Shown piece after piece: positions 56,448-58,838 of a stretch of 64,000 nt of DNA. Each line of letters opens with the position of its first letter. The first letter of the stretch is position 1. Source of the stretch: Nitrospira sp. (GTDB lineage: Bacteria > Nitrospirota > Nitrospiria > Nitrospirales > Nitrospiraceae); assembly GCA_024998595.1 (NCBI GenBank), contig JACOEK010000001.1, positions 930,001 to 994,000 on the forward strand, in the 5' to 3' direction. A program made the position numbers and the translations under genes. The notes beneath the pieces were generated by a model, which was not told where the DNA came from, ran no database searches, and saw only the letters and a program-made list of their open reading frames with translations.

Positions 56448-57791
56448 CTAGTTCCCCCACAAATGCTCATACCATTTCTTTTCCCCGCCATCCGGCAGTA
56501 ATGCGATGTTCATGGTTTTGCGGATCTCGCTAATGTTCCAACCGGTCAGTGAGGCCAGGGCCTGCGCTTCCCGCTCGTACCGCTCGCGCAATTGTCGGCG
56601 ATAGGCCGCGGCAGCCGAACAGTCGTCCGTCCCGGTCCACGGGTGACGCAGGATGTAGCGTGCTTGAAAGTTGCCGCGATCCGACGTTTCCTGAAACATC
56701 AGGTCTTCCGGAAAGTGCGCGGCATCGTAACGGACGTGTAGCCTGGTCAGAAATACGTTCTGCGCCATCGGCAGGTTTTTGCCCATCCGGCCAGTGCTCT
56801 CCTGCCAAAAGACGCCAAGGCTGCGCAGTTCTTCAGTCGACAGGGGATCGGCCGCGCAGGGATCACACCAGTTCATATCCCAGGCATACTCCACGAACAC
56901 GCCGCGCTCACTTTCCCGCTTCACCTGCTGGCCGAATAGGTCCCGATAGAAGTCGCCGAATTTGTCCTTCACGAAAAGTGGAATCTCCTGCGCGTCCGGC
57001 AGACGCACGGTCCGGTAGTTCGTGGTTTCGACGCGCCCTTGTTTCGTGAGGAAGTAGATGAATAATTCCTGCGCGCCATCGGCGTTGACCGTGCCGAGGC
57101 GGATCGGCAGCATGAATTTTGGCGATTCGAAGGCGATTTGCAGCGGTCGAAGGTGCGTCAGCCCCAGCTTGGCCTGCTCGCCCAGGTTCACCTTGGCGAC
57201 GAAGAATTTCATACGTTGTTTGAGATAACTCTGCAGGACTGCCGACGCTCCCTGCGGGATGCGGTATCCGTTTTCCGTCAGCCAGGTTTCCAGGCCGCTG
57301 CTCTCCTTGGCGGAGAGAATCAGGATGTCGTATTCACCGACTGTATACTGCGCTTCCACCGTCACCCCCAGGACCTTGTCCCGTTCGCGAGGCGCCGCCG
57401 CCGGCGCCATGCTCTTTATGGCATCCGTGCTGCGGCGCTCCATCAGTTCGTAGCGCAGGCAGGGATTTTGGTCGAAGTATTCGACCAGCCGGGGCGCCGA
57501 GTAGTCGGCAAGATGTTTCAAAAGGGCCGGATCGCCGACGTGGATCTGTTCTTTCTCCAAGATGGTCGGCACCGGCACTACGAGTGCAAACTCCTTCACG
57601 TCGCCCTTGAAGTCATTGGCCATCGTGATCACGGTCTTGTTGTCGTGCCTTGCGATGGCCACCTCGGAGGCTTTGTTGAACAGTTTCGTGTCGGCCTTGC
57701 CGACATAGAAGCCGCAGAACGCCGACGCGTCGTGAGTCCAGGCGAGCAGTCCCAGGGTCAGGACTAATGCAGGAATGATGGCACGTCGCAT
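56448..57791 (-). CDS. DUF2330 exported protein (internal start of a longer frame)
   Basis: ATG 57791 follows a perfect AAGGAGGT and begins a signal peptide (RRAIIPALVLTLGLLAW, cleavage after ASA). The 447-residue product matches DUF2330: FCGFYVGKADTKLFNKASEVAIA, FALVVPVPTILEKEQIHVG, VEAQYTVGEYDILILSA, and CDPCAADPLSTEELRSLGVFW with a Cys-x2-Cys pair. These are periplasmic proteins of unknown role. The same frame stays open upstream through an RnfD-like membrane domain, but the ribosome site and signal peptide argue that DUF2330 is made separately, at least in part. Confidence 0.8.
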   Translation of the reverse strand: MRRAIIPALVLTLGLLAWTHDASAFCGFYVGKADTKLFNKASEVAIARHDNKTVITMANDFKGDVKEFALVVPVPTILEKEQIHVGDPALLKHLADYSAPRLVEYFDQNPCLRYELMERRSTDAIKSMAPAAAPRERDKVLGVTVEAQYTVGEYDILILSAKESSGLETWLTENGYRIPQGASAVLQSYLKQRMKFFVAKVNLGEQAKLGLTHLRPLQIAFESPKFMLPIRLGTVNADGAQELFIYFLTKQGRVETTNYRTVRLPDAQEIPLFVKDKFGDFYRDLFGQQVKRESERGVFVEYAWDMNWCDPCAADPLSTEELRSLGVFWQESTGRMGKNLPMAQNVFLTRLHVRYDAAHFPEDLMFQETSDRGNFQARYILRHPWTGTDDCSAAAAYRRQLRERYEREAQALASLTGWNISEIRKTMNIALLPDGGEKKWYEHLWGN

Positions 57792-58691
57792 AGATACCTC
57801 CTTGGTTGGTGACAAAGCAGGGATGGGATTGGTGACAGGTTTGAGAACCGAATGAGCTGAACGACCGGTTGAAGAGGGAGTCCAGTGATAGCGTGCACCA
57901 GGAAGTAGGTAATCGATCAATGGGACAAGCGGCGCGCAGGCGATGAGTCCCCAGAGCGGCCCGTTCGGCCTGAATAGTCCGAACTGCACATAGAGGGCGG
58001 CGAGTGAGACGAGAAGCGCATAAATGATACGGCCGATATGTGAATCAGGGGTCGTCTTCGGGTCCGAGATCATGAAGAACGCGAAGATGAGCAGCGTGGC
58101 GCTTTCGAGTTGATGGATTGGGATCGTGTACGGATCGCCCAGCCGGAACGCGCGTGCGAACAGGAGACCAACATAGAAGGTCAGGAACGCCAGCGTGACA
58201 TCCGCTCGTGCGGCGCGAGTGACAACCAGACTCCCGAGACAGGCGATGAGAAACGCGAGCCAGGTGGCCTGACCCCATTGACCCGGCGAAATCCAACCGA
58301 GCCCGCTCGCGAGGATAACGGATAGGGCCAGGTTGGTCGGGTTGAAGAGATGTTTGTCATTCCAGCGGAAGAGGAATTTGCTGCCGATGGCGATGAAGGC
58401 CCCTAGCGCGGCCACCGTGAGATCGTGGGTACGAAGCAAGAGACACAGCGACAGGGAGGAGATCAGGGCGCTCTTGGGATCGAAGAACGGAAGGTTGGCG
58501 AGGCGTGTTCCGGCATATTGTGTGAGGAGGGCAATACCTATCGTGATACCGGCTTGCCAGATCGACAGGTCGAAGTGCAGCCAACCCAGACCGTACAGGA
58601 GGAGGAGGCCAAGGCAGGCGATTTGATAGAGCCGGGGATCGTGCCGATTCGCTGACGTAGCGGGTGCAGGACTGCCGTGATGATGTTCCAT
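56448..58691 (-). CDS. RnfD-like membrane domain fused in frame to DUF2330
   Basis: ATG 58691 is preceded by GGGAGGAG. The first ~285 residues hold about nine membrane helices and resemble RnfD/NqrB: FFDPKSALISSLSLCLLLR, HLFNPTNLALSVILASG and ATLLIFAFFMISDPKTTPDS, the last close to the RnfD MATDPVTSP region. No other rnf gene is near. The frame then runs through a Pro/Ser linker (~285-300) into the DUF2330 signal sequence without a stop, giving 747 residues. Either a true fusion is made, in which case the signal sequence acts as another helix, or the upstream gene lost its stop and DUF2330 is mostly translated from its own start. Confidence 0.6.
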   Translation of the reverse strand: MEHHHGSPAPATSANRHDPRLYQIACLGLLLLYGLGWLHFDLSIWQAGITIGIALLTQYAGTRLANLPFFDPKSALISSLSLCLLLRTHDLTVAALGAFIAIGSKFLFRWNDKHLFNPTNLALSVILASGLGWISPGQWGQATWLAFLIACLGSLVVTRAARADVTLAFLTFYVGLLFARAFRLGDPYTIPIHQLESATLLIFAFFMISDPKTTPDSHIGRIIYALLVSLAALYVQFGLFRPNGPLWGLIACAPLVPLIDYLLPGARYHWTPSSTGRSAHSVLKPVTNPIPALSPTKEVSMRRAIIPALVLTLGLLAWTHDASAFCGFYVGKADTKLFNKASEVAIARHDNKTVITMANDFKGDVKEFALVVPVPTILEKEQIHVGDPALLKHLADYSAPRLVEYFDQNPCLRYELMERRSTDAIKSMAPAAAPRERDKVLGVTVEAQYTVGEYDILILSAKESSGLETWLTENGYRIPQGASAVLQSYLKQRMKFFVAKVNLGEQAKLGLTHLRPLQIAFESPKFMLPIRLGTVNADGAQELFIYFLTKQGRVETTNYRTVRLPDAQEIPLFVKDKFGDFYRDLFGQQVKRESERGVFVEYAWDMNWCDPCAADPLSTEELRSLGVFWQESTGRMGKNLPMAQNVFLTRLHVRYDAAHFPEDLMFQETSDRGNFQARYILRHPWTGTDDCSAAAAYRRQLRERYEREAQALASLTGWNISEIRKTMNIALLPDGGEKKWYEHLWGN
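57796..57803 (-). promoter_or_regulatory. Perfect internal Shine-Dalgarno for DUF2330
   Basis: On the minus strand AAGGAGGT lies four bases before ATG 57791, inside the long RnfD-DUF2330 frame. This is the strongest ribosome site of the region and decides the independent DUF2330 start. Confidence 0.75.
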
Positions 58692-58838
58692 AACTCCTCC
58701 CTTCACGGGAGGGTATGGAACGAATCGGGGAATCCTTTCAGCGGAGCTATCCGACCGCCTCTAGGGATGTCCCTCATTGAGTGGCTGGTCGTAATCCATT
58801 AGCATGAGTATGAAATACCATTCAGCCGAGGTGATTTC

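What the first reader, a model, noticed from the sequence alone, without database searches (positions are those of the whole stretch)
56448..58691. RnfD-like membrane domain running in frame into a DUF2330 protein with its own start
Three hundred in-frame codons of an RnfD/NqrB-like membrane domain precede the DUF2330 start without a stop. DUF2330 has a perfect AAGGAGGT and a cleavable-looking signal peptide. So one frame could yield both a 747-residue fusion and a free 447-residue periplasmic protein, which is rare. No other rnf or nqr gene is near, so the RnfD-like part may serve a different redox partner, with DUF2330 as its outer module.
Basis: partly seen in the sequence, partly recalled or inferred. 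Interest (0 to 1): 0.6.

Follow-up and report, generated by a model that had tools for sequence, protein, structure and literature searches.

The report
Membrane–periplasm gene pair, repeatedly fused
A Nitrospira gene joins an RnfD-like membrane protein to an exported protein of unknown function, yet keeps a strong second start site inside it; relatives across many bacterial phyla almost always carry the same two genes side by side, sometimes fused and sometimes overlapping by four bases, so this is an old, unstudied two-part machine and the fusion is one of two interchangeable ways of making it.

Summary
The frame is real: 747 codons on the minus strand, RnfD-like membrane domain, about 30 loose residues, then DUF2330 with its own AAGGAGGT, ATG and signal peptide. 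It is not an error or recent stop loss: sixteen related species, including complete N. defluvii, share it. It is also not fixed. The tree needs 7 to 11 switches between this fusion and an ATGA overlap in which the membrane gene stops inside the DUF2330 start. In the window's clade the linker peptide drifts freely (dN/dS 1.04) but never gains a stop. The internal ribosome site is kept as DNA even where the frame over it differs. All 149 DUF2330 starts examined have a signal-peptidase-I-like AxA site, so fusion and internal start should give the same mature periplasmic protein. The pair itself is the larger finding: 79 of 80 membrane-protein relatives found across many phyla, and every intact Nitrospira locus, have DUF2330 beside them; no third gene is shared. 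The genome has no Rnf/Nqr complex, and the RnfD covalent-FMN loop is missing. DUF2330's predicted fold best matches viral P35 (Z 11), and it carries an invariant WCDPC. I read it as a translationally coupled two-subunit membrane module; its chemistry is inferred only.

The parts
58694..58703 (-). Shine-Dalgarno AAGGGAGGAG of the membrane gene, 2 nt before ATG 58691
   Evidence: Sequence read directly
57882..58691 (-). RnfD/NqrB-like membrane domain, residues 1-270, ten predicted helices, N and C ends cytoplasmic
   Evidence: Pfam; AlphaFold2 model and PDB match to RnfD Z 24.0, NqrB Z 21; conserved through W270 in 31 relatives; positive-inside count
57792..57881 (-). Linker, residues 271-300, predicted disordered; no peptide constraint but always open; contains the internal ribosome site
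   Evidence: pLDDT under 50 at 283-303; dN/dS 1.04; neutral simulation
57796..57803 (-). Internal Shine-Dalgarno AAGGAGGT
   Evidence: Kept in fused and split relatives, in different reading frames
57720..57791 (-). Internal ATG and signal peptide, residues 301-324, cleavage-like site ASA|FC
   Evidence: 149 of 149 relatives with the FC motif have small residues at -1 and -3
56448..57719 (-). Mature DUF2330 protein, residues 325-747, and stop
   Evidence: Pfam; AlphaFold2 pLDDT 80.5, pTM 0.79
56856..56867 (-). CDPC of the conserved WCDPC motif in DUF2330, residues 609-612
   Evidence: CDPC invariant and W nearly so in 62 aligned proteins

Best explanation
This is an old two-subunit inner-membrane module: a ten-helix RnfD-fold protein plus an exported DUF2330 protein, made in step from one mRNA. 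Junction mechanism: a ribosome translating the membrane gene must reach the DUF2330 start. In most Nitrospira-family relatives it stops at TGA inside ATGA and can restart. In this clade a length change in the free tail put both genes in one frame, so it reads on. DUF2330 is then made in two ways: by new initiation at the kept AAGGAGGT/ATG, and as the end of a fusion whose internal signal sequence enters the membrane and is probably cut by signal peptidase I. Both ways give the same mature protein. Shown by sequence: the pairing, the recurrent switching, the kept ribosome site, the unconstrained but open linker, the cleavage-like site. Inferred: use of both starts, cleavage, and stable association. 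Function, inferred and weak: the membrane part passes electrons, or a small solute, between the membrane and DUF2330, whose invariant WCDPC may be the working or structural dithiol. It does not work inside an Rnf or Nqr complex.
For: Pairing: 79 of 80 relatives from many phyla have DUF2330 beside the membrane gene; the four genus members without DUF2330 also lack PF03116; no third neighbour is shared across phyla. Switching: 28 fused rows need 11 changes, at least 7 on starred branches; among 68 family loci 27 are fused, 39 in the ATGA frame and 2 in the third frame. Internal start: AAG GAG is codon-invariant in 16 fused species, while only 2 of 14 other invariant Lys and 2 of 24 other invariant Glu columns are; L081 keeps the DNA motif while reading it as QRRF instead of TKEV; RNA around the start is mostly no more structured than shuffles. 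Linker dN/dS 1.04 and 0.87 against 0.12 and 0.15 for the membrane core. Topology and cleavage site. No Rnf/Nqr partners.
Against: No protein or ribosome data. Keeping the linker open can be explained by coupling alone, by a selected fusion, or by both. The 16 fused species share one ancestor, so they are not 16 independent cases. The simulation uses branch lengths from fast synonymous sites, which may be overestimated. The redox reading rests on fold and one motif; the membrane part has no invariant cysteine and no RnfD FMN loop.
Confidence: 0.6

Rival explanations
1. The fusion is selected as such: an uncut, membrane-tethered DUF2330 is the working form, and the internal start is a minor or relic site.
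For: Linker stays open in 16 of 16 species with lengths 25, 26, 36 and 37 codons, all whole-codon changes; fusions recur, also in Acidobacteria, Vicinamibacterales and a deltaproteobacterium.
Against: The ribosome site is kept as DNA in the Nitrospira fusions and a recognisable one in the fusions of other phyla; AxA site in all; linker peptide unconstrained; ATGA relatives manage without fusion.
Confidence: 0.2
2. The fusion is tolerated noise: stop codons in a free tail come and go, only the internal start matters, and read-through product is waste.
For: Frequent switching; linker dN/dS near 1.
Against: No stop or frame break in 16 fused species where about six would be expected; the third frame occurs in only 2 of 68 loci.
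Confidence: 0.15
3. Sequencing or assembly error removed a stop.
For: None found.
Against: Same fusion in many genomes, including complete chromosomes FP929003 and CP011801.
Confidence: 0.01
4. The module is a transporter rather than a redox device: RnfD folds also resemble AmtB and urea channels.
For: AmtB and urea transporter matches at Z about 11; no FMN loop.
Against: RnfD/NqrB matches are far stronger, Z 21-24.
Confidence: 0.2

Closest known systems
RnfD / NqrB (PF03116)
   Same: Fold over 252 residues, Z 24.0 to 8rbq_D; C-terminal half similar in sequence
   Different: FNP-to-DPxT stretch 74 residues shorter than in E. coli RsxD, so the FMN loop is missing; no Rnf/Nqr complex in the genome; paired with DUF2330
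NQR/RNF-like flavinylation systems (PMC8238504)
   Same: Stand-alone NqrB/RnfD-type membrane domain fused to a second domain
   Different: There the fused domain is a cytosolic NAD-binding one with an FMN-binding partner; here it is an exported DUF2330
ATGA-overlapping, termination-reinitiation gene pairs (PMC6728339, PMC10666635)
   Same: Most relatives in the family have ATGA or TGATG overlap; such pairs often encode complex subunits
   Different: Here the overlap alternates with in-frame fusion that keeps the internal start
Bradyrhizobium fbcH cytochrome b/c1 precursor (from memory, not found in the library)
   Same: Membrane protein and exported protein in one precursor with an internal cleavable signal
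   Different: No second start known to me there; cleavage here untested
Baculovirus P35
   Same: Best structural match of DUF2330, Z 11.0 over 222 residues, also top among viral models
   Different: 6-9% identity, low TM-scores, exported bacterial protein; no evidence of protease inhibition

Membership tests
NQR2_RnfD_RnfE (PF03116) | Profile score above gathering cut-off | tested here: met
   51.8 bits against 27.7
NQR2_RnfD_RnfE (PF03116) | RnfD/NqrB fold | tested here: met
   Z 20-24 to RnfD and NqrB structures
RnfD subunit proper (TIGR01946) | Score above NCBIfam cut-off | tested here: not met
   33.3 bits against 207
RnfD subunit proper (TIGR01946) | Periplasmic loop with covalent FMN | tested here: not met
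   Stretch 74 residues shorter than in RsxD and no conserved attachment motif; position of the FMN threonine in RsxD is from memory
RnfD subunit proper (TIGR01946) | Encoded with RnfA/E-type subunits | tested here: not met
   No PF02508 in the genome
DUF2330 (PF10092) | Profile score above gathering cut-off | tested here: met
   277 bits against 24.7
Translationally coupled overlapping gene pair | Overlap of stop and start | tested here: not met
   Not in the window, where the genes are fused; present in most family relatives
Translationally coupled overlapping gene pair | Downstream synthesis depends on upstream translation | not testable with these tools
   Needs a reporter experiment
Precursor cut at an internal signal (FbcH-like) | Internal signal sequence with signal peptidase I-like site | tested here: met
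   149 of 149 sequences
Precursor cut at an internal signal (FbcH-like) | Actual cleavage | not testable with these tools
   Needs N-terminal proteomics
P35 inhibitor | P35 fold | tested here: inconclusive
   Z 11.0, rmsd 4.5 over 222 residues, next unrelated rows Z 6.3, but Foldseek TM 0.22-0.37
P35 inhibitor | Protease inhibition by a reactive-site loop | not testable with these tools
   Needs an assay

The most novel reading that the evidence does not exclude
A widespread, undescribed inner-membrane module joins an RnfD-type conduit that lost its FMN loop to a periplasmic P35-like-fold protein with an invariant CDPC. Evolution has many times swapped separate overlapping genes for an in-frame precursor that still uses its internal start, so one frame yields one mature partner by two routes.
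Probability: 0.35. Interest if true: 0.72.

Novelty: new variant of a known kind. Interest (0 to 1): 0.5.

Why it matters
It turns two families without a known joint role into one testable module found in many phyla, including the nitrifier Nitrospira. DUF2330 does not occur in the 5.39 million papers searched. The fused and ATGA sister species form a natural experiment on what keeps neighbouring genes coupled: the same pair, with the same ribosome site, with and without a stop. The P35-like fold, if confirmed, would put a viral caspase-inhibitor fold in bacteria.

Tried and rejected
Sequencing error (complete genomes agree). A conserved third partner gene (neighbour clustering found only clade-local neighbours). 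A hairpin hiding the internal start (RNA in most tested sequences less structured than shuffles). Covalent FMN on the membrane part (loop missing). A solved relative of DUF2330 by sequence (no match up to E 5). Literature on DUF2330 or COG4402 (none). A paper on fbcH (not found). Which junction state is ancestral: the class-level outgroups show one fused and two not fused, so left open. The first dN/dS script stopped with an error and was redone.

Full report
What is there. On the minus strand, 58691 to 56448 is one frame of 747 codons plus stop. Residues 1-270 are an RnfD/NqrB-type membrane domain, 271-300 a linker, 301-324 a signal peptide with its own ATG and AAGGAGGT, and 325-747 DUF2330. 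Both starts have strong ribosome sites. The genome has one copy of each domain and no RnfA/E-type gene.

Relatives. Of 29 genomes of the genus, 25 have DUF2330. Those without it (G004, G009, G015, G024) also lack the membrane gene; three more without a membrane match have DUF2330 cut off or bounded by a contig end. In the family, 73 of 175 genomes have DUF2330, and wherever the sequence reaches, the membrane gene is immediately upstream. In 79 of these DUF2330 lies beside it; the one exception ends at the contig edge. No other neighbour is shared across phyla. This pair is the real unit.

Junction. Fused and separate states are mixed on the tree: at least 11 changes, 7 forced by starred branches (quick tree, single support value). 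The commonest separate state is a 4-base ATGA overlap. Among 68 family loci 27 are in the fused frame, 39 in the ATGA frame and 2 in the third, one of these a broken gene. So both common states bring the ribosome to the DUF2330 start; the third frame is almost absent. That is the argument for coupling; it is inference from sequence.

Is the internal start used? In the 16 fused species of the window's clade the codons AAG GAG never vary, although among other columns with invariant Lys or Glu only 2 of 14 and 2 of 24 have an invariant codon. In L081 the same DNA motif is read in another frame as QRRF, so the DNA and not the peptide is kept. Fusions in other phyla also keep a purine-rich ribosome site before the internal ATG. 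RNA folding around the start is mostly weaker than in shuffles. These facts favour real internal initiation.

Is the fusion itself kept? The linker peptide is free to change (dN/dS 1.04 and 0.87 in two subclades, against 0.12 and 0.15 in the membrane core), is predicted disordered, and differs in length by whole codons (25, 26, 36, 37). Neutral simulation on a tree from fourfold sites leaves 9.7 of 16 open on average and never all 16. Something keeps it open: coupling, the fusion product, or both; the data do not separate these.

Topology. Ten helices with more positive charge on the presumed inner side put the linker in the cytoplasm, so the internal signal enters the membrane in the normal direction and DUF2330 lands in the periplasm in the fusion as well as in the free form. 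Small residues at -1 and -3 occur in all 149 sequences with the FC motif. If cut, both routes give the same mature protein.

Function. The membrane part has the RnfD fold (Z 24.0) but fails the RnfD subunit model, lacks the stretch carrying the FMN loop, and has no Rnf or Nqr partners. DUF2330 is highly conserved across phyla with an invariant CDPC, nearly always WCDPC. Its model best matches baculovirus P35 (Z 11.0, 222 residues, rmsd 4.5; next unrelated rows 6.3), and P35 proteins are again first among viral models, but TM-scores are low. The low-confidence variable loop at residues 110-138 of the DUF2330 model lies roughly where the reactive-site loop of P35 falls in sequence order; I could not check this residue by residue. 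P35 inhibits through its reactive-site loop and amino terminus (PMC3375223); nothing here shows inhibition. I favour a redox or solute conduit with a periplasmic partner, with low confidence on the chemistry.

Comparison. ATGA pairs and their link to protein complexes are known (PMC6728339, PMC10666635). Stand-alone NqrB/RnfD domains fused to a cytosolic domain are known (PMC8238504). Neither describes this pair; DUF2330 does not occur in the paper library.

Noticed in passing
window 56448-57719: The predicted DUF2330 fold resembles baculovirus P35 better than any other solved structure (Z 11.0), and P35 proteins also lead in the viral model library.
   Followed up: partly
G000:C6:822920-823156 and 826704-827537 (L189, L188): FMN-binding domain and ApbE lie close together about 160 kb from this locus, so the genome has a separate flavinylation system.
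   Followed up: no
L059, L079, L080 (g14): The membrane gene overlaps an earlier ATG, leaving about 70-280 extra bases before the usual DUF2330 signal; a longer leader or small extra gene.
   Followed up: no
L072 (G057), L068 (G068): Likely decayed copies: DUF2330 with four stops in G057; membrane frame ends far upstream in G068.
   Followed up: no
L100, L101, L102: Distant DUF2330 proteins elsewhere in the phylum have extra membrane segments and a C-terminal part that looks by eye like a type II secretion pseudopilin, without the RnfD-like partner.
   Followed up: no
L158: A contig titled Klebsiella pneumoniae carries this pair among environmental relatives; the MAG label is probably wrong.
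   Followed up: no
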